Assembly: GCA_019753105.1 (NCBI GenBank)
Contig: JAIELJ010000007.1
Location: forward strand, 121,195 to 185,194
Direction of reading: 5' to 3'
DNA: 64,000 nt
From: Hyphomonadaceae bacterium
GTDB taxonomy: Bacteria; Pseudomonadota; Alphaproteobacteria; Caulobacterales; Aquidulcibacteraceae
Shown here: piece by piece, positions 2,143 to 55,214 of the stretch
Layout: every line of letters starts with the position of its first letter
Position numbering within the stretch: position 1 is the stretch's first letter
Notes under the pieces: generated by a model
What the model saw: the letters and a program-made list of their open reading frames with translations, nothing else
Databases searched by the model: none
What the model was told of the DNA's origin: nothing
Translations under genes and position numbers: made by a program

Positions 2143-4728
<2,586 letters not shown>

Positions 4729-4734
4729 AGCAAA

Positions 4735-4762
4735 ACGGGCGGAGCCGCTAAGCTCCGCCCGT
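4735..4762. terminator. Hairpin terminator after clpB, probably bidirectional
   Basis: Perfect 11-bp inverted repeat ACGGGCGGAGC (4735-4745) and GCTCCGCCCGT (4752-4762) around a 6-nt loop. It begins 6 nt after the clpB stop and is followed by a pyrimidine-rich stretch. It lies between convergent genes (clpB and the small lipoprotein), so it can serve both strands. Confidence 0.8.
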
Positions 4763-4789
4763 TCTCCTTTCAGCGCTTGCGCGCGAAAC

Positions 4790-5014
4790 TTAGTTCGTCG
4801 CCGGATTGTCGTCCGTCGCGTGCTCGACTTCGGTCGCCGCGTCGTTGACGGCGCCTTCGACAGCTTCGCCGGCTTCGTTAGCGGCTTCGCCAACAGTGTC
4901 TGCCGCTTCTTCAACCGTTGCGCCCGCTTCGTCAGCGGCGTTCTCGGTTTCAGCTTGCGTGCAGGCCGCGAGGCCCAGAGCCGCAGCAGCGGCGATCGCC
5001 AAAAGAATTCGCAT
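4790..5014 (-). CDS. Small acidic lipoprotein, entericidin-like
   Basis: 74 residues. The N-terminus is a lipoprotein signal (MRILLAIAAAAALGLAAC) with lipobox LAAC and lipidated Cys at residue 18. The mature part is short, very acidic and built of repeating EAA/ADE/GEA units, likely an amphipathic helix. Small Ala/Glu-rich lipoproteins of this kind resemble entericidin-type envelope proteins, but no specific function can be assigned. Convergent with clpB and divergent from the PAP2 gene. Confidence 0.75.
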   Translation of the reverse strand: MRILLAIAAAAALGLAACTQAETENAADEAGATVEEAADTVGEAANEAGEAVEGAVNDAATEVEHATDDNPATN

Positions 5015-5150
5015 GTTTCTCTCCTATCCCGTCCCTGAGGAAGAGAGACTCTTACAAACCTGTCACGGCCGCGAATATAGAAAAGTTCGCATGTCTCGCG
5101 ATCGAGCTATGCATTGGGAACCTTTAACGCGCTTGCGCATTCCACGCCGG

Positions 5151-5876
5151 ATGACGGGGATTGCCTTGAAACCTCTGCCGAAAGCCTGGCTCGCCTGGGC
5201 CCGCCAAGAGGTCGTGCCGATCGGTGTGTTTCTGGCGATCGCATCGCTGCTGCTGATGTTTGTCGAGATTTCCGACGAAGTCACCGAAGGCGAGGGCGAA
5301 GTTGACTGGTTCGATCGCGGGCTGCTGCTGGCGCTGCGCACGAGCGACCCGGCCGATCCGATTGGGCCGCGTTGGTTTGAGCTTTCCATCGTCGATATCT
5401 CCGCGCTCGGCGGCTTCGCGGTGCTTGCGCTGCTGACGGTTATTTCGCTGGGCTATCTCGCAATGCTGCGCAAATGGGCGGAAGCGGGCATGCTGCTTGT
5501 CGCCACCTTGGGCGGCGCGCTCATCAGCGAAGGCCTGAAGGAAGCCTTCGGCCGCGCGCGCCCCGATCTTGTCGCGCATGTCGTGGAAACCACGAGCATG
5601 AGTTTCCCGAGCGGGCACGCAATGCTCTCTGCGGCCACGTATCTGACGCTCGGCGCATTGCTCGCGCACGCGCAGGAGAAGCGGCGCTTGCGCGGCTACA
5701 TTATTGGCGCGGCAATCCTGATCACGCTGCTTGTCGGCGCCAGCCGCGTCTACCTTGGCGTCCACTGGCCGACAGACGTTCTCGCCGGCTGGTGCCTCGG
5801 CGCGGCGTGGGCGCTCTTGTGCTGGGTGGTTGCGGCTTGGCTCACGCGCGAGGATCGGCGTAAAGTCGAGGCATGA
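5151..5876 (+). CDS. PAP2-family membrane phosphatase
   Basis: 241 residues from the ATG at 5151. All three phosphatidic-acid-phosphatase signatures are present: KEAFGRARP (K-x6-RP), FPSGH, and [12 protein letters not shown] (SR-x5-H-x3-D). About six membrane helices. It probably removes phosphate from a lipid such as undecaprenyl pyrophosphate or phosphatidylglycerophosphate at the inner membrane; the substrate is unknown. An upstream in-frame ATG at 5091 is possible, but the 20 codons it adds have only about 50% GC at third positions, unlike the gene body, so the later start is preferred. The stop overlaps the start of the pirin gene (ATGA), implying translational coupling. Confidence 0.85.
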
Positions 5877-7227: not shown

Positions 7228-8976
7228 ATGCGCACACTCACACTCTTCGCGGCGATCGTGGCGCTTCTCGTCGCAGCCCCGGCCGCAGCGCAGCAGCAGC
7301 GCCCCAACATCGTGCTGATCCTCGCCGATGACGTGGGCTACACCGATCTCGGCGCCTATGGTGGCGAAGCGCGCACGCCGAACATCGATCGCCTCGCATC
7401 ACGCGGCGCGCAATTCTCGCGCTACTACACATCGCCGCTCTGTTCGCCCTCGCGCGCGATGCTGCTGACGGGCCTCGATAACCACCGCACTGGCCACGCC
7501 ACCATCATCGAAGTGCTGCCGCCGGAACTGCGCGGGCGCCCGGGCTATTCGATGCGCCTCGAACCCGGCGTCGTTACGATGGCGTCGCGGTTACGCGATG
7601 CGGGCTATCGCACTTACGTCACCGGCAAATGGCACTTGGGTCACGGCGAGGGCGATCTGCCGGACTCGCACGGTTTCGACCGCTCGTTCGTGCTCGATGC
7701 TTCCGGCGCCGATAATTGGGAAGAGCGCGCCTACATGCCCTATTACCGAACCGCCGATTGGTTCGAGAACGGCGCGCGTGCGCATCTGCCGGAAAACTTC
7801 TATTCGAGCCAATTCATCGTCGATCAGATGATCGACTATCTCGATGCTGACGCTCAAGGCGACGAGCCCTTCTTCGCTTACCTCGCATTCCAAGCCGTGC
7901 ACATTCCCGTCCAAGCGCCGCGTACGCTGACGGAGGGCTATAACGGCGTCTACGATGCGGGCTGGGAAAGCGTACGCGCACAACGCTGGCAGCGCGCGCA
8001 AGCGCTGGGCCTCATCCCCGTTGGCGCGCCCATTGCGCCGCGACATCCGAGTTTCCGCGCCTGGAGCGCGCTCAATGGCGATGAGCAGGCGATTTATGCG
8101 CGCAGCATGCAAGTTCACGCCGGCATGCTGGAATCGATGGATCAGCACATTGGCCGCTTCATTGCTTATCTCGAAAGCCGCGGGCTGGCTGAAAACACCA
8201 TCTTCGTCGTGACGTCGGACAACGGCCCAGAGCCCAGCAATCCGATCGTTGAGCCGGATTTCGTACGCTGGATGTCGCTGACCGGCTATTCGCGGCGCTT
8301 GGACAATCTCGGCGAGCGCGGCTCGTTCGTGTTCATCGGCCCGGAATGGGCGAACGCGACGGCTGGCGGTTCGCTCTACAAATTCACAGCAGGCGAGGGC
8401 GGCTTGCGCGTGCCCTTCATCATGGCAGGGCCTGGCATTGCGCAGCAGCGCGTCGATGCGCGCGCCTTCGTGATGGATGTCGCGCCGACGCTGTTGGAGC
8501 GCGCCGGTGTGTCGCTCGACGGGGCGCAGATCGATGGCGTCAGCATGAATGGCGCGCTGTCTGGGTTATCGCCCGTCATTCGAGGCGATACAGATTCCGT
8601 TGGCGTCGAAGTCTCGGGCCATTCCGCGCTCTACCGCGGCGACTATAAACTCGTGCGGACGCCCGCGCCGCTCGGCAATGGCGAATGGCGCCTCTACAAC
8701 ATCGCGCGCGATCCCGGCGAGACGAACAATCTTGCCGCGCAAATGCCCGATCTCGTGGCCGCGATGATCAGCGATTATGGCGCGTATGAGGATCGTGTCG
8801 GCGTGCTGCCTTTGCCGGAAGGCTACGACGTGCAGCGCCAGGTCGTGGACAATGTCCGCATGAAGCAGCTGGAGTATTATTGGTGGGTGCTGGCGATTGG
8901 GGCCGCGCTCGTCCTGCTGATCGTGCTTGGCCTGATCTGGCTCGTCTCGCGCATTTTCCGGCGCAAAGCCGCTTGA
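7228..8976 (+). CDS. Secreted/membrane-anchored sulfatase (arylsulfatase type)
   Basis: 582 residues from ATG 7228. Signal peptide at residues 1-21 (hydrophobic core ending AAPAAAQ), then the type I sulfatase fold beginning PNIVLILADDVG with the metal-binding Asp pair. The active-site motif is CSPSR with Cys about 72, the residue converted to formylglycine by an FGE-type maturase. TGKWHLG, the second sulfatase signature, is also present. A C-terminal membrane helix (about 552-575) is followed by a basic tail, so it is probably periplasmic and anchored in the membrane. It hydrolyses a sulfate ester; the substrate is unknown. The maturase is not in the window. Confidence 0.92.
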   Translation: MRTLTLFAAIVALLVAAPAAAQQQRPNIVLILADDVGYTDLGAYGGEARTPNIDRLASRGAQFSRYYTSPLCSPSRAMLLTGLDNHRTGHATIIEVLPPELRGRPGYSMRLEPGVVTMASRLRDAGYRTYVTGKWHLGHGEGDLPDSHGFDRSFVLDASGADNWEERAYMPYYRTADWFENGARAHLPENFYSSQFIVDQMIDYLDADAQGDEPFFAYLAFQAVHIPVQAPRTLTEGYNGVYDAGWESVRAQRWQRAQALGLIPVGAPIAPRHPSFRAWSALNGDEQAIYARSMQVHAGMLESMDQHIGRFIAYLESRGLAENTIFVVTSDNGPEPSNPIVEPDFVRWMSLTGYSRRLDNLGERGSFVFIGPEWANATAGGSLYKFTAGEGGLRVPFIMAGPGIAQQRVDARAFVMDVAPTLLERAGVSLDGAQIDGVSMNGALSGLSPVIRGDTDSVGVEVSGHSALYRGDYKLVRTPAPLGNGEWRLYNIARDPGETNNLAAQMPDLVAAMISDYGAYEDRVGVLPLPEGYDVQRQVVDNVRMKQLEYYWWVLAIGAALVLLIVLGLIWLVSRIFRRKAA

Positions 8977-8999
8977 GCCGGACCCCCTTGAGCCGGACC
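8972..8999 (+). repeat. 13-bp tandem direct repeat at the sulfatase stop / MerR promoter
   Basis: CTTGAGCCGGACC occurs at 8972-8984 and again at 8987-8999, a 15-bp period. The first copy contains the sulfatase TGA stop. The pair lies 43 bp upstream of the MerR-family gene, where an autoregulatory site could be expected. It could also be a chance local duplication. Confidence 0.45.
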
Positions 9000-9042
9000 T
9001 AAGGGCTGGCCTTTTCTTCTGTCCCGTTCGAGGAAAGATGAG

Positions 9043-9816
9043 ATGAGGCGCAGCGTATTCCAGGAGACGGCAACTGCGGTGGCGCGTCGTTTCGGCGTCA
9101 GCGTCAAGGCCTTGCGCGTCTACGAGCAAGCGGGGCTGCTGAAGCCCGCGCGCACGATGGCCGGCTGGCGCATCTATGGCGCGGCTGAACTCGAGCGGCT
9201 CTCCGCCATCTTGGCGCTGAAGCAACTCGGCTTGCCGCTGAAACGCATCGGCGAGCTGCTGCGCGGCAAGGGTGATCTCGCCGCTGCTTTGGTGCTGCAG
9301 GAAGCCGCGCTGGAGGACGCCAAAGCCGATGCGGAGCAAGCGCTTGCGCTTGTCCGCGCCGCGCGGGCCAAGCTGGCCAAGAGCGGTCACCTTTCCCCGG
9401 ACGAGCTAGCAAGCCTCGTCAGGAGTACGGCAATGTCTGAGTTCAAATGGAACGACAAAATGGAATCGCTCGCGCAGAAGCACTACACGCCCGAGCAATT
9501 GCAGGCGCTGCGTGGTCGCCCGTTCACGGCGGAGGATCAGGCGCGCGTGAGTGCGGCGTGGGCGGAGGTATTCGCTGATATCGATGCGCTCGGTCCCGAT
9601 CCCGATCCGACGACCGATAGGGCGCTTGAGATCGGGCGCCGGGCGAGGGCGCTAATCACAGAGTTCACGCAGGGCGACCCGGCGATGTTTAAGGCGGCGG
9701 GCGCCATGAACCGTGATATGATGGCCGATCCCGAAATCGCCGCACGTGGCCCAGGATCGCCGCAAAGCATGGCGTTCTTGAGTCGCGTCTTCGTTGTGCT
9801 TGGCGCAAGCGGGTAG
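9043..9816 (+). CDS. MerR family regulator with TipAS-like C-terminal domain
   Basis: 257 residues. The winged-helix MerR DNA-binding domain is at about residues 8-80 ([45 protein letters not shown]), followed by an Ala-rich dimerisation helix (about 85-125) and a helical C-terminal domain (about 135-250) with the pattern of TipAS antibiotic-recognition domains (KYTPEQ-like segment, [10 protein letters not shown]). TipA-type proteins sense small hydrophobic ligands or antibiotics and activate transcription by distorting the promoter. The target is unknown; it follows the sulfatase on the same strand. Confidence 0.88.
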
Positions 9817-49924: not shown

Positions 49925-51883
49925 TTACACGTCAGAGCGGAAACCGACTTTCGCGTGCGTGCCGTCGCAGAACGGCTTGGTGTTCGACTGGCCGCATCGG
50001 CAAAAACGCGCCGCCGTCATCCGCGCCACCATGCGCCCCGTGCCGGAGATCACTTCGAGGTTGCCGCGCACCATGAGCGGGCCGTTGAGTTGTGGCGTCA
50101 CCTCAAGCGGGCCATCGCGTACAGCGAGCATGGCGGTTTGGTCGCCGGTCGGCGGTTCGCCGCTGGCGCTGAAGCCGACATCATGGTGCGAGCCGTCACA
50201 GAACGGCTTGTTCTTCGATGCGCCGCAGCGACAGAGCGTGGCGCGATAGCCGAACGGTTCGCCGTCGATAGTGAGATCACCGCGGAACGCGTAGGGGCCA
50301 GCCTCTCGCACCGAGATGAGATTAACAGGCGGCGGCTGTTCTTCGCGCCCGCCATCCTTGCGTCGATACTGGATCGCGCCCGACGGACATTCTCGTGACA
50401 CCGCCATCAATTCTTCCGCGTCCATATCGTCGGGATGGATCCATGGGCCTTGCACATTGGCGAGGAAGACCTTCGGCGCACCGGTGACGCAGAAGCGCGA
50501 GTGAATGCAAAGCTTGCCGCGATAAAGGATTTGCACCGTCTCGCCCTCGGCCACTTCGAGACCATCGACTTTGGTCGTCGGCGGCGGGGGCTTTGGCTCA
50601 TTCGTTGGTGCCGGTGCGAGCGCGGGCGGTGGCTCGTTCGTCATCTCCGTAAAGCGCTGTGCGCGGGCGGCCAGCGCTTTCAGCAACCCAGCGGCGCGCG
50701 CGCATCGTTGGTCGTTTTCATCAAGCCGCGCGGCGTACTTGGATAATTCCGTCATACGCTCGGCGAAGAACCGCCGCGCGCCGGCCGAAGGCGGAAACGG
50801 CGCAGCATCGCGTAGCGACGTGAACGACATACCGGCATTGCAATCCGGATGGGACGGCCCGGCCGGACGGCGCGCGGCGCTCTCGCCCAACAGCGTCGCT
50901 ACTTTCATGAGATCGATGCCGAGATCGACGGTGAGGGCTTTCTCCGCGCTTGGGCTCGGCAGCACGTACGCGTATCCGAGCAAGCGCAACATTGTCTGAT
51001 AAGTAGCGTTCGCGACATCGACGATGGCGGCGGCGTTCTCGTCCTCAAGCCATACGCGATTCTCAGCGAGCGGACGGCGCAGGACGGGATTCACAGCGGC
51101 CGGATGGGCCGGTGTGAAGTCCGGGTTCTTTGCCAGCAACGCATCGTACTCGTCGCGGATGTGGCGGAAGCGGCAAAAGTGCGAGTTCTGGTTCTCATCG
51201 TTGGCGCCTTCGCCTTCGGTGATGATCGCTGCACACGCTTGCAGCGCCGTCTTCAAACACAGAACCGGCTTTGCGCCTTTCAGCACGAGTTCCGCTTCGG
51301 AAAGCTGCAGAGCGGGGTCGCCGCAGAACAGCGCTTTCTCGCCGAGCTTGTCGGCCATGAAGGAGAGCGCCTTCTCCATCATGTCGTAGAATTCGCCGAC
51401 GGTTTCATAATCGAACGCCATCGGCGTCAGGCGCGGGCGCGTCGAGCCTCGGCGAAAGTTGCGTTCGTAGCGGAATGACTCGCCATCTGGCTCTTGGGAG
51501 TCGCGCGGGCGCTCGAGGTGAATGAAGTGCTGGAGCACGTCGCGATTGAAGGGCGCCAACTTCACCACGACGCCCGCTGGCAGATAGCCGGGATCGAGCG
51601 GAAAGTTGCCGCGGCCAAAGCCTGGGCTGCCGCCCACCGCCGCGGTGATGTTCCACACAGCGACGAGGTGGCCCATTTCATCGATGGCGACATCGAGGAT
51701 CGCGCGGCGCCAGCGTTTGACCGCTTCAGCTTCCTCAGCGCTCAAGCCTTCGGCTTCGCCATCCTTCAGCGAGAAGGCGGCGTAGAGGTAGGTGCACATC
51801 AAATTGTGCTCCAGCTCCGCCGCCTCGTAGAGCGCGTGGATCAATTGTTCGCGCGTTGGAGCGAGAACTGGATCAGCCGTCAT
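49925..51883 (-). CDS. Ferritin-like / 4Fe-4S / double-CDGSH iron-sulfur fusion protein
   Basis: 652 residues from ATG 51883. N-terminal ferritin-like domain of the VioB/iminophenylpyruvate-dimer-synthase type (about 10-240) with EAAELEHNLMCTYLYA and DVAIDEMGHLVAVWNI, i.e. the Glu...E-x2-H iron ligands. Helical middle (about 260-415), Pro-rich linker, then a single-cluster ferredoxin-like domain (about 440-500; CIHSRFC, ECPSGAI). Two CDGSH domains follow, each with C-x-C...C-x3-H: CRCGASKNKPFCDGSHH (about 551-567) and CRCGQSNTKPFCDGTH (about 628-643). A multi-centre redox protein; reaction unknown. Divergent from the FixJ-type regulator. Confidence 0.85.
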   Translation of the reverse strand: MTADPVLAPTREQLIHALYEAAELEHNLMCTYLYAAFSLKDGEAEGLSAEEAEAVKRWRRAILDVAIDEMGHLVAVWNITAAVGGSPGFGRGNFPLDPGYLPAGVVVKLAPFNRDVLQHFIHLERPRDSQEPDGESFRYERNFRRGSTRPRLTPMAFDYETVGEFYDMMEKALSFMADKLGEKALFCGDPALQLSEAELVLKGAKPVLCLKTALQACAAIITEGEGANDENQNSHFCRFRHIRDEYDALLAKNPDFTPAHPAAVNPVLRRPLAENRVWLEDENAAAIVDVANATYQTMLRLLGYAYVLPSPSAEKALTVDLGIDLMKVATLLGESAARRPAGPSHPDCNAGMSFTSLRDAAPFPPSAGARRFFAERMTELSKYAARLDENDQRCARAAGLLKALAARAQRFTEMTNEPPPALAPAPTNEPKPPPPTTKVDGLEVAEGETVQILYRGKLCIHSRFCVTGAPKVFLANVQGPWIHPDDMDAEELMAVSRECPSGAIQYRRKDGGREEQPPPVNLISVREAGPYAFRGDLTIDGEPFGYRATLCRCGASKNKPFCDGSHHDVGFSASGEPPTGDQTAMLAVRDGPLEVTPQLNGPLMVRGNLEVISGTGRMVARMTAARFCRCGQSNTKPFCDGTHAKVGFRSDV

Positions 51884-51941
51884 CAAGAACCTCTAGGAAC
51901 AGGGCGTCAGCTTAGCGGATGCGCTTGCCATCGGCCCAATC

Positions 51942-51953
51942 ATATTATGGTAT
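51942..51953. promoter_or_regulatory. Putative response-regulator operator, site A (ATAT-TATG-GTAT)
   Basis: Half-sites ATAT (51942-51945) and GTAT (51950-51953) four bases apart, one mismatch from the ATAC-N4-GTAT found twice more in this cluster. It lies in the 111-bp divergent promoter between the ferritin/CDGSH gene and the FixJ-type regulator. A second degenerate copy, ATGC-GTAG-GTAT, is at 51975-51986, 33 bp away. NarL/FixJ-type regulators of the TodT/StyR group bind half-sites separated by four bases, the same geometry. Confidence 0.55.
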
Positions 51954-51994
51954 AGGCGCCGCTCGCGCCAAGTTATGCGTAGGTATTGGGTGCG

Positions 51995-52609
51995 ATGATT
52001 TCGGTCGTACACATCATTGATGACGACGCCTCCTTGCGTAGCGCGTTGGACAGTCTCTTCCGCTCCACCGGACTGGAGACGCGCCTTCACGAATCTGTCA
52101 CGGCGTTCATGGATGCGCCGCTGATCGATGCGCCTGGTTGCCTCGTGCTCGATGTGCGCATGCCGGGCATGAACGGCTTGGACTTCCAGCAAAAGCTTGA
52201 AGAATTGGGCGTACGCCTGCCGGTCATCATGATGACTGGCCACGGCGATATTCCGATGAGCGTGCGCGCGATGAAGGCGGGCGCGGTGGATTTTCTCGCC
52301 AAGCCCTTCCGCGATCAGGAAATGCTGGACGCCGTCGCCACAGCATTAGAGCGCGATCAGGCCCGGCGCGCCGAGAGCGACAAAACAGATACGCTCAAGG
52401 CTGCATACGCAACTTTGTCGCCGCGCGAGCGCCAAGTCATGGCGCTGGTGGCGGCCGGCAAGATGAATAAGCAGGTCGCGGGCGATCTCAATCTGAGCGA
52501 AATCACCGTGAAGATCCACCGCGGCTCGGCCATGCGCAAGATGGGGGCGCGAACCCTTGCCGATCTTGTGCGCATGGCTGAAGCGCTGGGCGTCCGGCCG
52601 GGCGCCTAA
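51995..52609 (+). CDS. FixJ/TodT-type response regulator with LuxR DNA-binding domain
   Basis: 204 residues from ATG 51995. Receiver domain (about 1-120) with acidic pocket IIDDDAS, phospho-Asp about 53 (VLDVRMPGMNG), MMTGHGD and the Lys of AKPFRD. Short linker, then a LuxR-type helix-turn-helix (about 137-200: LSPRERQVMALVAAGKMNKQVAGDLNLSEITVKIHR). Likely transcription factor for this neighbourhood. Divergent from the ferritin/CDGSH gene and followed by a stand-alone receiver and a PAS kinase. Confidence 0.94.
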   Translation: MISVVHIIDDDASLRSALDSLFRSTGLETRLHESVTAFMDAPLIDAPGCLVLDVRMPGMNGLDFQQKLEELGVRLPVIMMTGHGDIPMSVRAMKAGAVDFLAKPFRDQEMLDAVATALERDQARRAESDKTDTLKAAYATLSPRERQVMALVAAGKMNKQVAGDLNLSEITVKIHRGSAMRKMGARTLADLVRMAEALGVRPGA

Positions 52610-52627
52610 ACGATAGGCGCTGCACTT

Positions 52628-52643
52628 TCATACTAGCGTATGA
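52628..52643. promoter_or_regulatory. Putative response-regulator operator, site B (TCATAC-TAGC-GTATGA)
   Basis: Perfect 6-bp inverted repeat with a 4-bp centre (52628-52643), the best copy of the ATAC-N4-GTAT motif. It contains the ATG usually taken as the start of the receiver gene (52640). Either the true start is downstream (GTG at 52679) or binding here blocks transcription or elongation. Confidence 0.6.
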
Positions 52644-53047
52644 TTTCATCAGCCGAGCACGGAGCCGACATTAGCCACGTGGCTGATGACACCCTGATTT
52701 CGATCATCGACGACGATGACTCGCTGCGTACGGCGCTGGTGGGGCTCGTCCGTTCGCTCGGTTACCGGGCGAATGGCTTTGCCTGCGCCGAGGATTTTCT
52801 CGCCGCCGACCACGCGTCCCGCAGCGCCGCCATCGTCACCGACATCCATATGCCGGGCCTCTCGGGCATTGAACTCAAGCAACGCCTGACCGCGGACGGC
52901 TGCGCTGCGCCCGTCATAATGATCACCGCGCGTTCGGAGGCCGGCCTGCAGGAGAAGGCGTTCGAGAGCGGCGCGGTCTGCGTGCTGCGCAAACCGTTCG
53001 CCGCGGAAGCGCTGATCGAGTGCTTGGAGCGCGCGCTGGCGAAATAG
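52640..53047 (+). CDS. Stand-alone response regulator receiver
   Basis: 135 residues. Receiver domain only: IIDDDDS pocket, phospho-Asp about 68 (VTDIHMPGLSG), MITARSE, LRKPFAAE. No output domain, so it may be a phosphate sink or phosphorelay intermediate for the adjacent kinase and FixJ-type regulator. The start is uncertain: ATG 52640 has no clear ribosome site and sits in an inverted repeat, and GTG 52679 would trim 13 residues ahead of the receiver fold. Confidence 0.88.
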   Translation: MISSAEHGADISHVADDTLISIIDDDDSLRTALVGLVRSLGYRANGFACAEDFLAADHASRSAAIVTDIHMPGLSGIELKQRLTADGCAAPVIMITARSEAGLQEKAFESGAVCVLRKPFAAEALIECLERALAK

Positions 53048-53071
53048 CAGCAAGCGCGCTAGGGGAGGCGC

Positions 53072-54301
53072 ATGGTTACAGAACCAGAACCGAGCGCCGA
53101 GCAAGCCTTGCGCGAAAGCGAGTATCGCTATCGCAATCTCTTTCAAGCGATGGCGGCGTCGTTCTGGGAACTCGATTTCTCACCTGTCGGCGCCATGCTG
53201 CGCGATCTGCGCAAGCAGGGCGTGACCGACTACGCCGCTTACTTCGCCGAGCATCCAGCTTTCGTGCGCCAGATGATGGCCGCGACCCGCGTTATTGACG
53301 TGAACGATCAGACCGTGGCGTTGTTTGGTCGAGGTGAAAAAGCCGAGTTGCTGCGGCCGCTCGATGATTATTGGCCCGAAGAGAGCAATCACGTCTACGC
53401 TGCAAGCGTGCTCGCCGCCGTCAGCGGCAGAGCCAGCTACGCCACGGAGTGCAAACTCAGAAAGCTCAACGGCGAAACCTTCGACGCATTGTTCACCGCA
53501 TGTTTTGCGCCGGAGGCTGTGGCCAACGGCAAGCTGCTCATCGGGGTTATCGACGTGTCAGAACGCGTGCAGGCGCAAGCCATGCTGCGCCAAGTGCAAG
53601 CTGAGTTCGCGCACGCCGCGCGAGTCTCCATGTTAGGCGAGCTGACAGCGTCGATCGCCCATGAAGTCAACCAGCCGCTCGCCGCGATCGCCACCAACGC
53701 TTCCGCGGGCCTGCGCTGGCTCGATCGGCCTGAGCCTGACATCGTCGAAGTCCGCGCGCTGACGCAGCGCATTATCGCCGACGCCCAGCGCGCGGCCGAT
53801 ATCATCTCACGCGTGCGTACCATGGCCGGCCACCGCGCTCCTGAAACCGCGCCGATTGCCGTGAATGGCGTGGTTGAAGAGGCGATGCTGTTCCTTGCGC
53901 ACGAACTGCAAGCGCATCAGGTCGCGTTGCGGCTCGTGCTCGTTAAGGGCTTGCCGCCGGTTATGGCCGATCGCGTGCAGGTGCAGCAGGTGATTGTGAA
54001 CCTAGCGGTCAACGCCATTCAGGCGATGGCGCAAACCGCCAGCGCCGTGCGCGCTTTGACGATCAGCACCAGCGCTCGCGACGATCTCGTGACAATCGAT
54101 GTTGAGGATAGCGGCCCTGGAGTCGATCTCGCGCAACAGCATCGTCTGTTCGAGAGCTTCTTCACGACCAAGGCCAACGGCATGGGCATGGGTCTGCCGA
54201 TCTGCCGTTCAATCGTTGAGAGCTATGGCGGCGCCCTTTCGGTGCGCAATCGCGCCGAAGGCGGCGCCTGTTTTACAGTCACGTTGCCGGTCGCGTCATG
54301 A
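53072..54301 (+). CDS. Cytosolic PAS-domain sensor histidine kinase
   Basis: 409 residues, no membrane helices. Good ribosome site AGGGGAGG before the ATG. PAS-like sensor (about 15-170; the RVIDVNDQTVALFG segment and the DVSERVQAQ exit), dimerisation helix with ELTASIAHEVNQPLAAI (phospho-acceptor His about 197) and HATPase domain with NLAVNAIQAM (N box), VEDSGPGVD (G1), TTKANGMGMGLPI (G2). The HEVNQPL form is that of FixL/DctB/TodS-like kinases. It probably phosphorylates the FixJ-type regulator. The PAS ligand (redox, heme, flavin or aromatic) is not evident. Confidence 0.93.
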   Translation: MVTEPEPSAEQALRESEYRYRNLFQAMAASFWELDFSPVGAMLRDLRKQGVTDYAAYFAEHPAFVRQMMAATRVIDVNDQTVALFGRGEKAELLRPLDDYWPEESNHVYAASVLAAVSGRASYATECKLRKLNGETFDALFTACFAPEAVANGKLLIGVIDVSERVQAQAMLRQVQAEFAHAARVSMLGELTASIAHEVNQPLAAIATNASAGLRWLDRPEPDIVEVRALTQRIIADAQRAADIISRVRTMAGHRAPETAPIAVNGVVEEAMLFLAHELQAHQVALRLVLVKGLPPVMADRVQVQQVIVNLAVNAIQAMAQTASAVRALTISTSARDDLVTIDVEDSGPGVDLAQQHRLFESFFTTKANGMGMGLPICRSIVESYGGALSVRNRAEGGACFTVTLPVAS

Positions 54302-54309
54302 ACGCGATT

Positions 54310-54321
54310 ATACGTCTGTAT
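54310..54321. promoter_or_regulatory. Putative response-regulator operator, site C (ATAC-GTCT-GTAT)
   Basis: Exact ATAC-N4-GTAT inverted repeat at 54310-54321, just after the kinase stop and 80 bp ahead of the first alpha/beta hydrolase start. It is the third copy of this motif in the cluster and would bring the two hydrolase genes under the same regulator. Confidence 0.55.
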
Positions 54322-54401
54322 TAGAGCTTTAGCCCTATGTAGAATGGTTATCGGCTGGGCGTGGGCGCATCCTCTCATCATCGAATGAGATGGAGGTTCC
54401 G

Positions 54402-55214
54402 ATGACCAAGACAATCGTTCTCGTACACGGCGCGTGGCTGAATTCGAAAGCCTGGGAAAACTGGAAGACGCGCTTTGAAGCGCGCGGCTACACCGTCGTC
54501 ACGCCGGATTGGCCGGGCGATGAAGGCGATCCCGTCGATCTCAAAGCCAATCCACGCAAAGAGTTGACGAAGTACGGCCCGAAAGAAATCGTTGCGCATT
54601 ATGAGCGCATTATTCGCGCGCTGCCGGAAAGCCCGATCATTATCGGCCACAGCGCTGGCGGCGTGTTCACGCAGCATTTGCTCGATCGTGGCCTGGGCGT
54701 CGCGGGCGTCGCCATCGATCCCGCACCGACACCTGGCGTTGGCTTGCCACTCGATGCGGTGATCTCGGCTTTCCCGGTGCTGAGCGATCCCTTCAGCGGC
54801 GGCAAGGTTGTGTCGATGACGAAGAAGTTCTTCGCCGAGCGCTTCGCCAACGGCTTGCCGCGCGATCAGATCGACTACCAGTTCGATCGCTACATCGTGC
54901 CGACGGCTGGCAAAGTCTATTGGGACGGCGTCGTCTCCGGCGGCGCGGGCGCAATCACTTGGAACAGCAAGACGCGCGCGCCGCTTCTGCTGATCGGCGG
55001 CGGCATCGATCTCATCGCGCCGGCCAGCATGACGCGCGCCATCTTCGCCAAGCAAAAGCGCGCCAAGTCGCTCACTGAGCTGAAGATATACGAAGATCGC
55101 TCGCACTATCTCTGCGCGGAACCGGGCTGGGAAGAAGTGGCCGACTACGCGCTTGGCTGGGCCGAGCGCAATCAACGCGGCGCAGTGACTCCCCTCAGCG
55201 CCCGCGCGGCCTAA
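54402..55214 (+). CDS. Alpha/beta hydrolase
   Basis: 270 residues from ATG 54402, which has GGAGG at a good distance; an ATG at 54390 overlaps that ribosome site and is rejected. Fold motifs: VLVHGAWLNSKAW (oxyanion strand), nucleophile IIIGHSAGGVFTQ, and a C-terminal SHYLCAEPGWEEVA with the His. Resembles small cytosolic hydrolases annotated as esterases or hydroxynitrile-lyase-like. No signal peptide. Substrate unknown. A second alpha/beta hydrolase follows after 27 nt. Confidence 0.88.
   Translation: MTKTIVLVHGAWLNSKAWENWKTRFEARGYTVVTPDWPGDEGDPVDLKANPRKELTKYGPKEIVAHYERIIRALPESPIIIGHSAGGVFTQHLLDRGLGVAGVAIDPAPTPGVGLPLDAVISAFPVLSDPFSGGKVVSMTKKFFAERFANGLPRDQIDYQFDRYIVPTAGKVYWDGVVSGGAGAITWNSKTRAPLLLIGGGIDLIAPASMTRAIFAKQKRAKSLTELKIYEDRSHYLCAEPGWEEVADYALGWAERNQRGAVTPLSARAA

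What the first reader, a model, noticed from the sequence alone, without database searches (positions are those of the whole stretch)
51887..54402. Three to four copies of an ATAY-N4-GTAT inverted motif tie a FixJ/PAS two-component system to an iron-sulfur fusion protein and two hydrolases
Seen directly: ATAT-TATG-GTAT at 51942-51953 (with a degenerate copy ATGC-GTAG-GTAT 33 bp further on), TCATAC-TAGC-GTATGA at 52628-52643, ATAC-GTCT-GTAT at 54310-54321. All lie at intergenic or gene-start positions of one cluster. Known: TodT/StyR-type FixJ regulators bind half-sites spaced by four bases. Inference: this is the operator of the encoded regulator, which would control itself, the stand-alone receiver, the divergent ferritin/CDGSH-MpaB pair and the two alpha/beta hydrolases.
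Basis: partly seen in the sequence, partly recalled or inferred. Interest (0 to 1): 0.72.

Follow-up and report, generated by a model that had tools for sequence, protein, structure and literature searches.

The report
Conserved operator of FixJ-type regulator
Three copies of a short mirror-image DNA motif next to a bacterial signalling gene are very probably the docking sites of the regulator that this gene encodes; the same motif sits beside related regulators in other bacteria, so the finding is real but of a known kind.

Summary
The motif is real. ATAY-N4-GTAT occurs at 51942, 52630 and 54310 and nowhere else in the window. The 3.87-Mb genome has 10 places: 3 in this 2.4 kb, and 5 of the 7 others inside open reading frames. 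The three positions (before the FixJ-type gene, before the stand-alone receiver, after the kinase and before the hydrolases) are kept in all five genus genomes found to own this regulator: 12 of 15 sites fit exactly, 3 have one mismatch. Operator plus hydrolase promoter block occurs once in each of those 5 genomes and in none of 25 others. Hydrolase orthologues without the regulator have no site (0 of 4). Outside the genus, 26 of 37 non-redundant relatives (at least 54% identity) carry the motif within 200 bp, against 0-5 for other spacings and 0-6 for permuted arms. Best reading: self-encoded operator TCATAC-N4-GTATGA of a StyR-like regulator, acting as an activator site near the -35 region. 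Control of self, receiver/kinase and hydrolases is likely. Control of the ferritin gene is open, of MpaB unsupported. The fourth, degenerate copy is not conserved. No binding was measured.

The parts
51942..51953 (+). operator 1 (ATAT-TATG-GTAT), between the divergent ferritin/CDGSH gene and the FixJ-type gene; centre 47.5 bp before the FixJ ATG at 51995
   Evidence: same place in G000, G016, G008, G018; one-mismatch site (ATCC-TCAG-GTAT) before the regulator in G009
52628..52643 (+). operator 2 (TCATAC-TAGC-GTATGA), perfect match to the consensus of 40 sites, between FixJ-type gene and receiver gene
   Evidence: the only match of the 20-position sequence model at E<=10 in the own genome (E 1.47)
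54310..54321 (+). operator 3 (ATAC-GTCT-GTAT), between kinase and first hydrolase
54331..54345 (+). conserved core-promoter block downstream of operator 3 (AGCC-N4-GTAGAAT); -10-like TAGAAT at 54340-54345
   Evidence: same spacing in 5 genus genomes (G009 with one mismatch) and, with small changes, in L122, L124, L136
51995..52609 (+). FixJ/NarL-type response regulator (receiver + GerE helix-turn-helix), 204 aa
   Evidence: Pfam PF00072 and PF00196; nearest solved structure StyR 1yio
52679..53047 (+). stand-alone receiver; start probably GTG 52679 rather than ATG 52640, which lies inside operator 2
   Evidence: PF00072; frame checked; L122, L127, L135, L136 have Met at this alignment column, the five genus rows and L143 have Val
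53072..54301 (+). PAS sensor histidine kinase, 409 aa
   Evidence: HisKA and HATPase_c; model of the N-terminal 183 residues (mean pLDDT 84.9) matches LOV, PAS and FixL structures by Foldseek
54402..55214 (+). alpha/beta hydrolase 1 (start 54402 is the one shared by the five genus genomes)
   Evidence: PF12697
55242..56090 (+). alpha/beta hydrolase 2
   Evidence: PF00561
49925..51883 (-). ferritin-like / Fer4_19 / CDGSH fusion gene, divergent neighbour; target status uncertain
   Evidence: PF12902, PF06902, PF09360

Best explanation
The inverted repeat TCATAC-N4-GTATGA (core ATAY-N4-GTAT) is the binding site of a dimer of the FixJ/NarL-type response regulator encoded at 51995-52609. Inferred mechanism: the PAS kinase (53072-54301) phosphorylates the regulator in response to an unknown signal; the phosphorylated dimer binds each site, which lies upstream of a -10-like element where a -35 box would be, and recruits RNA polymerase as an activator. 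One site stands before the regulator's own gene (positive autoregulation), one before the receiver-kinase pair (possible feedback arm, compare FixT), one before the two alpha/beta hydrolases (output). Shown: conservation of site, place, spacing and promoter block, and co-occurrence with the regulator. Inferred: binding, phosphorylation dependence, activation. Operator 1 might also serve the divergent ferritin/CDGSH gene, but that is not shown.
For:: 3 of 10 genome-wide places fall in this 2.4 kb (P 1.3e-4); regulator orthologues at 73-86% identity were found in 4 other genomes of the genus, 5 of 30 with the own; 15 of 15 expected sites have at most one mismatch to ATAYN4GTAT, while the central bases vary at sites 2 and 3; operator plus promoter block of site 3 in 5 of those 5 genomes and 0 of 25 others, one copy each, control pattern 0; the 4 hydrolase-1 orthologues without the regulator have no match with fewer than 3 mismatches in about 200 bp; in 942 kb around 80 relatives ATAC-N4-GTAT occurs 43 times, the other spacers from 0 to 15 give 0-5; 26 of 37 non-redundant loci outside the genus (controls 0-5 by spacer, 0-6 by permuted arms); relatives under 54% identity 3 of 20. 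TAGAAT or TACAAT at one fixed distance in all 6 hydrolase promoters that have a site, three of them outside the genus; nearest solved relative is StyR, whose high-affinity site lies about -40 (PMC2442086, abstract and passages).
Against: No binding or expression data. In an unbiased count of exact 4-bp-arm palindromes ATAC/N4 only ties for first with CGTC/N3 (8 of 37 each). Four of the 10 named hydrolase-1 loci examined, all outside the genus, have no site with at most one mismatch in the 350 bp searched. A sequence model of 40 sites finds at E<=10 only operator 2 in the own genome and its counterpart in G016, none of the sites of G008, G009 and G018, and not operators 1 and 3: the motif is short and the model weak. 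Two of six ferritin promoters without the regulator beside them have a one-mismatch site (G020, G024) although no regulator orthologue above about 43% identity was found there. The -10-like element after the FixJ-gene and receiver-gene sites is only weakly conserved. The genomes compared are 57-100% complete, so some absences may be gaps.
Confidence: 0.85

Rival explanations
1. The motif is the operator of some other regulator encoded elsewhere, and the cluster only happens to be its target.
For: No binding data; FixJ-like genes are many (30-76 first-look candidates per genus genome); one-mismatch sites at two ferritin promoters in genomes without a close regulator orthologue.
Against: The site follows the regulator gene through the genus (5 of 5 against 0 of 25) and beyond it (26 of 37), also in G009 where the two-component locus is 330 kb from the ferritin gene.
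Confidence: 0.07
2. The conserved stretches are mainly core promoter elements (-10 boxes such as GTATAAT, TATGAT) and the symmetry is incidental.
For: Operators 1 and 2 contain TATTAT/TATGAT-like strings; some relatives read GTATAATG.
Against: Both arms are kept at a fixed 4-bp spacing with a variable centre, and at site 3 a separate conserved TAGAAT begins about 24 bp beyond the dyad centre.
Confidence: 0.05
3. The repeats act as RNA hairpins (6-bp stem, 4-nt loop at site 2) for processing or attenuation between the genes.
For: TCATAC-N4-GTATGA can pair with itself; sites 2 and 3 lie between co-directional genes. No fold was computed.
Against: Many conserved sites break pairing on one side only (ACAC...GTAT, ATAC...GTGT), the stem is A+T-rich, and site 3 lies upstream of its own conserved -10-like element.
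Confidence: 0.02

Closest known systems
StyR/TodT-type operators (ATAAACN4GTTTAT)
   Same: FixJ/NarL-type regulator; inverted half-sites with a C-N4-G centre; a high-affinity site about -40 of the activated promoter in StyR (PMC5874301 and PMC2442086, abstract and passages); StyR is the nearest solved structure
   Different: Half-site TCATAC, not ATAAAC; of the three StyR residues cited for DNA contact (K175, V176, H179) the first is kept and the others read I and G; no aromatic-ring degradation family among the ten neighbouring proteins scanned; TodS-like kinases end in a receiver (passage), this one has a single transmitter and the receiver is a separate gene
FixLJ-FixT (Caulobacter, Sinorhizobium)
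   Same: FixJ-type regulator, PAS kinase, single-domain receiver that in FixLJ is induced by the regulator and inhibits the kinase (PMC7078487, abstract and passages); the FixJ model is the best NCBIfam match of the regulator
   Different: Regulator scores below the FixJ equivalog cut-off (223.6 against 255) and kinase far below the FixL one (192.6 against 850); FixJ motifs in print (TAAGTAATTTCCCTTA, GTAMGTAG, GTAGTTTCCC; PMC4999443, passages) differ; the receiver lacks the clustered 4-Cys motif of Caulobacter FixT
NarL 7-2-7 sites
   Same: Inverted repeat bound by a GerE-domain dimer; ends in TAC...GTA (PMC4549865, passages)
   Different: NarL heptamers are separated by two bases and the TAC/GTA ends by ten; here TAC and GTA are separated by four

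Membership tests
NarL/FixJ-family response regulators | receiver domain plus GerE (LuxR-type) helix-turn-helix | tested here: met
   PF00072 E 5e-27 and PF00196 E 5.4e-22, both above cut-off
FixJ proper (FixLJ system) | score above the NCBIfam FixJ equivalog cut-off | tested here: not met
   NF006900 223.6 bits, cut-off 255
FixJ proper (FixLJ system) | FixL-type kinase by the NCBIfam cut-off | tested here: not met
   NF041777 matches residues 159-408 only, 192.6 bits against 850
FixJ proper (FixLJ system) | haem in the kinase's PAS domain | not testable with these tools
   the N-terminal model is PAS-like; the cofactor was not examined
StyR/TodT group | operator ATAAACN4GTTTAT | tested here: not met
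   consensus of 40 sites is TCATAC-N4-GTATGA; spacer length and central C/G are shared
StyR/TodT group | recognition residues K175, V176, H179 of StyR | tested here: not met
   K, I, G at these places (numbering checked)
StyR/TodT-like mode of action | site at about -40 of an activated promoter | tested here: inconclusive
   distance to -10-like elements would put the centre near -37 (hydrolase promoter) or -43 (own promoter), my arithmetic; no transcription start is known
FixT feedback receivers | clustered 4-Cys Fe-S motif | tested here: not met
   no CxxCxxC cluster; the window receiver's four cysteines are far apart, two of them shared by 11 and 12 of 14 relatives; the FixT motif is C53/C56/C59/C64 in PMC7078487
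FixT feedback receivers | stand-alone receiver whose gene is a target of the regulator and which inhibits the kinase | not testable with these tools
   operator 2 precedes it; inhibition needs an assay

The most novel reading that the evidence does not exclude
A widespread StyR-like FixJ subfamily (signature TVKIHRG in the recognition helix), for which my paper searches found no description, shares one operator, TCATAC-N4-GTATGA, across several Alphaproteobacterial orders and Pseudomonas. It drives its own gene, a FixT-like single receiver as a feedback arm, and a changing set of detoxification-type enzymes (alpha/beta hydrolases, isochorismatases, catalase), with two promoter geometries.
Probability: 0.5. 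Interest if true: 0.55.

Novelty: new member of a known kind. Interest (0 to 1): 0.42.

Why it matters
It gives a specific, testable operator for a group of FixJ-type regulators found in bacteria of several orders, so that their targets can be predicted from sequence. It also offers a pair of related regulators (StyR-type and this one) whose half-sites and recognition helices can be compared to learn how specificity changes in this family. In this locus it links a PAS sensor and a spare receiver to two hydrolases.

Tried and rejected
Fourth copy (51975-51986): rejected as an operator; of the three alignable relatives its left arm is kept in none and its right arm only in G008; it lies where a -10 element would be expected.

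Ferritin/CDGSH as an obligatory target: not accepted. Of 10 ferritin-gene promoters examined the four next to the regulator have the ATAT/GTAT site; of the six others the best match to ATACN4GTAT within 250 bp has 3, 1, 1, 2, 3 and 3 mismatches (G011, G020, G024, G009, G001, G004). G020 and G024 have a one-mismatch ATAC-N4-GGAT at -48, which I cannot explain. The other ferritin matches (21 of 61 genomes had any) were not used: most are partial or weak.

Wider regulon: the exact pattern, operator plus promoter block and a 20-position sequence model gave no convincing target outside the locus. The class-wide search with the strict promoter block found it only in the own genome, 1 of 385. The surroundings of the other exact sites of G008, G009, G016 and G018 were fetched but only scanned for the cluster's own genes.

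A fixed -10 (TGNNA) after the FixJ-gene and receiver-gene sites: 4 of 19 sites at one offset plus 4 of 19 one base on, and 7 of 19; treated as weak.

Targets in other genera: I chose 10 genes beside distant sites. Pfam named an SDR, an isochorismatase, an AraC regulator, a catalase, a TonB receptor, an HbpS-like protein and, below its cut-off, a DUF2306 protein; 3 had no family. These are single cases, not a tested regulon.

Not examined: 24 of the 25 regulator relatives (the other is the window's own); some are the same contigs as loci. One search kept the best 80 of 284 confirmed relatives, found through two peptide patterns.

Literature: the searches (open-licence PMC only) listed no paper whose title or abstract start describes ATAC-N4-GTAT or this cluster; I read passages of five papers, none whole. 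Subscription papers are not covered, so absence from print is not established.
Full report
WHAT IS THERE. The cluster reads: a ferritin-like/Fer4_19/CDGSH fusion gene and an MpaB-type gene on the minus strand; divergent from them a FixJ-type response regulator, a stand-alone receiver, a histidine kinase and two alpha/beta hydrolases on the plus strand. Pfam finds no PAS domain in the kinase, but a model of its N-terminal part (10-sequence alignment, mean pLDDT 84.9) matches LOV, PAS and FixL structures by Foldseek, so 'PAS' in the title stands.

THE OBSERVATION. ATAY-N4-GTAT occurs three times in the window, at 51942, 52630 and 54310, all in this cluster; spacers other than four give at most one match. 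In the whole genome there are 10 distinct places (4 with ATAC). Of the seven outside the cluster, five lie inside open reading frames of 137 aa or more, a sixth lies just before a likely gene but inside an opposite-strand frame, and one overlaps no frame of 100 aa. The total is close to that of the reversed control pattern, so the motif is not a genome-wide element; but three of ten within 2.38 kb has a chance of 1.3e-4.

CONSERVATION IN THE GENUS. The regulator has close orthologues (73-86% identity) in G016, G008, G018 and G009, so 5 of 30 genus genomes with the own; the other 25 have none at E<=1e-40 or a relative of 39-46% identity. In the five, a site stands before the regulator, between regulator and receiver, and after the kinase: 12 of 15 fit ATAY-N4-GTAT exactly, and 3 of 15 have one mismatch (G018 and G009 before the receiver, ACAC-N4-GTAT; G009 before the regulator, ATCC-TCAG-GTAT). 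In 13 of these 15 stretches the second-best match has two or more mismatches; the exceptions are the fourth copy in G000 and a shifted overlap in G016. At sites 2 and 3 the central bases vary while the arms stay; site 1 is kept with its centre in four genomes. Behind site 3 lies a conserved block AGCC-N4-GTAGAAT. Searched genome-wide with up to three mismatches, operator plus block (a pattern drawn from these same loci) occurs once in each of the five genomes and in none of the 25 others (1 in 142,506 by chance). The genomes are 57-100% complete.

NATURAL EXPERIMENTS. Hydrolase 1 has orthologues in 9 of 30 genomes. Four of the five with the regulator have the site 84-90 bp before the gene; in G018 it is about 720 bp away because an isochorismatase-family gene stands between. 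The four without the regulator (G024, G001, G020, G015) have no match with fewer than three mismatches in about 200 bp. The ferritin gene has full-length starts without the regulator beside it in six genomes examined; none has an exact site, though two have a one-mismatch one. In G009 regulator and ferritin gene are 330 kb apart; the sites stay with the regulator locus and the ferritin promoter's best match has two mismatches.

BEYOND THE GENUS. A scan of 84,980 species genomes gave 284 confirmed relatives, of which the best 80 were kept. In their 942 kb ATAC-N4-GTAT occurs 43 times; the other spacers from 0 to 15 give 0-5 (this set includes the three same-genus loci). After dropping those three and loci whose regulators are 80% identical or more to one kept, 57 of 80 remain. 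Of the 37 with at least 54% identity to the window's regulator, 26 have a site with at most one mismatch within 200 bp of the regulator gene; other spacers (0-12) give 0-5, permuted arms 0-6. Of the 20 more distant ones, 3 have it, where controls give 0-2. In a fully unbiased count of exact palindromes (256 arms, spacers 0-16) ATAC/N4 ties for first with CGTC/N3, 8 of 37 each. Loci with a site come from Sphingomonas, Ferrovibrio, Caulobacter, Bradyrhizobium, Mesorhizobium, Pseudomonas and others. The consensus of 40 sites, which I picked from the matches, is TCATAC-N4-GTATGA; operator 2 matches it perfectly.

HOW IT MOST LIKELY WORKS. Of 10 named loci with a hydrolase-1 gene, 6 have a site with at most one mismatch before it, and in all 6 TAGAAT or TACAAT follows at the same distance (three of the six are the same-genus loci; the four without a site are outside the genus). 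The dyad thus occupies the place of the -35 box, as expected of an activator that touches RNA polymerase; StyR's high-affinity site lies about -40 (PMC2442086, abstract and passages). Binding, phosphorylation and activation are inferred. Operator 2 stands before the stand-alone receiver. The ATG that seems to start this gene (52640) lies inside the operator; GTG 52679, in frame, is more likely because four relatives have Met at that column. In Caulobacter the single receiver FixT is induced by FixLJ and inhibits FixL (PMC7078487, abstract and passages). A like feedback role here is a guess: the phospho-acceptor Asp is kept in 14 of 14 aligned receivers, but the clustered cysteines of Caulobacter FixT are absent; two widely spaced cysteines are shared by 11 and 12 of 14.

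WHAT IS KNOWN. StyR, TodT, TutB and TmoT are said to recognise ATAAACN4GTTTAT, with StyR K175, V176 and H179 at the DNA (PMC5874301, passages). StyR is the nearest solved structure (E 9.8e-65); the window's protein has K, I and G there. Of 42 relatives with a site, 34 helices could be read and 32 have G at the last place; of 38 without, 23 could be read and 15 have it, so this residue alone does not decide. The design is StyR-like with another half-site. FixJ motifs in print differ (PMC4999443, passages), and the protein falls below the FixJ equivalog cut-off.

VERDICT. Autoregulation and control of receiver/kinase and hydrolases are likely; control of the ferritin gene is open; control of MpaB and the fourth copy are not supported. 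It is a new member of a known kind.

Noticed in passing
52640-52681: The receiver gene's apparent ATG (52640) lies inside operator 2; the in-frame GTG at 52679 is the likelier start, about 43 bp after the dyad centre, so the mRNA might be nearly leaderless.
   Followed up: partly
L094:9757-10407 (G018): An isochorismatase-family gene sits between operator/promoter 3 and hydrolase 1, so the same promoter would drive a longer enzyme operon; L127 (Sphingopyxis) also has an isochorismatase gene (8808-9422) after a motif copy (8705).
   Followed up: partly
L147:530-2023 and 2090; 3364 and 3398-5710 (Sphingomonas oleivorans): A motif copy lies between a catalase gene and a small open reading frame near a relative of the regulator; another lies before a TonB-dependent receptor gene.
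   Followed up: no
L095:4934-6091 (G008): The kinase gene of G008 matches in three overlapping pieces in two frames, so it is broken there or the assembly has frameshifts, while the operators are intact.
   Followed up: no
49925-51883: The divergent gene joins a ferritin-like domain (partial similarity to VioB), a 4Fe-4S mono-cluster domain and two CDGSH stretches; in G055 the ferritin-like and the iron-sulfur parts match in two separate pieces.
   Followed up: no
L096 and L097 (G020, G024), about 48 bp before the ferritin gene start: One-mismatch sites ATAC-N4-GGAT in two genomes where no close regulator orthologue was found; unexplained.
   Followed up: no
L094:7617-9662 (G018): The kinase of G018 is longer and carries a DUF4118 domain and a Pfam PAS domain in front of the conserved part.
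   Followed up: partly
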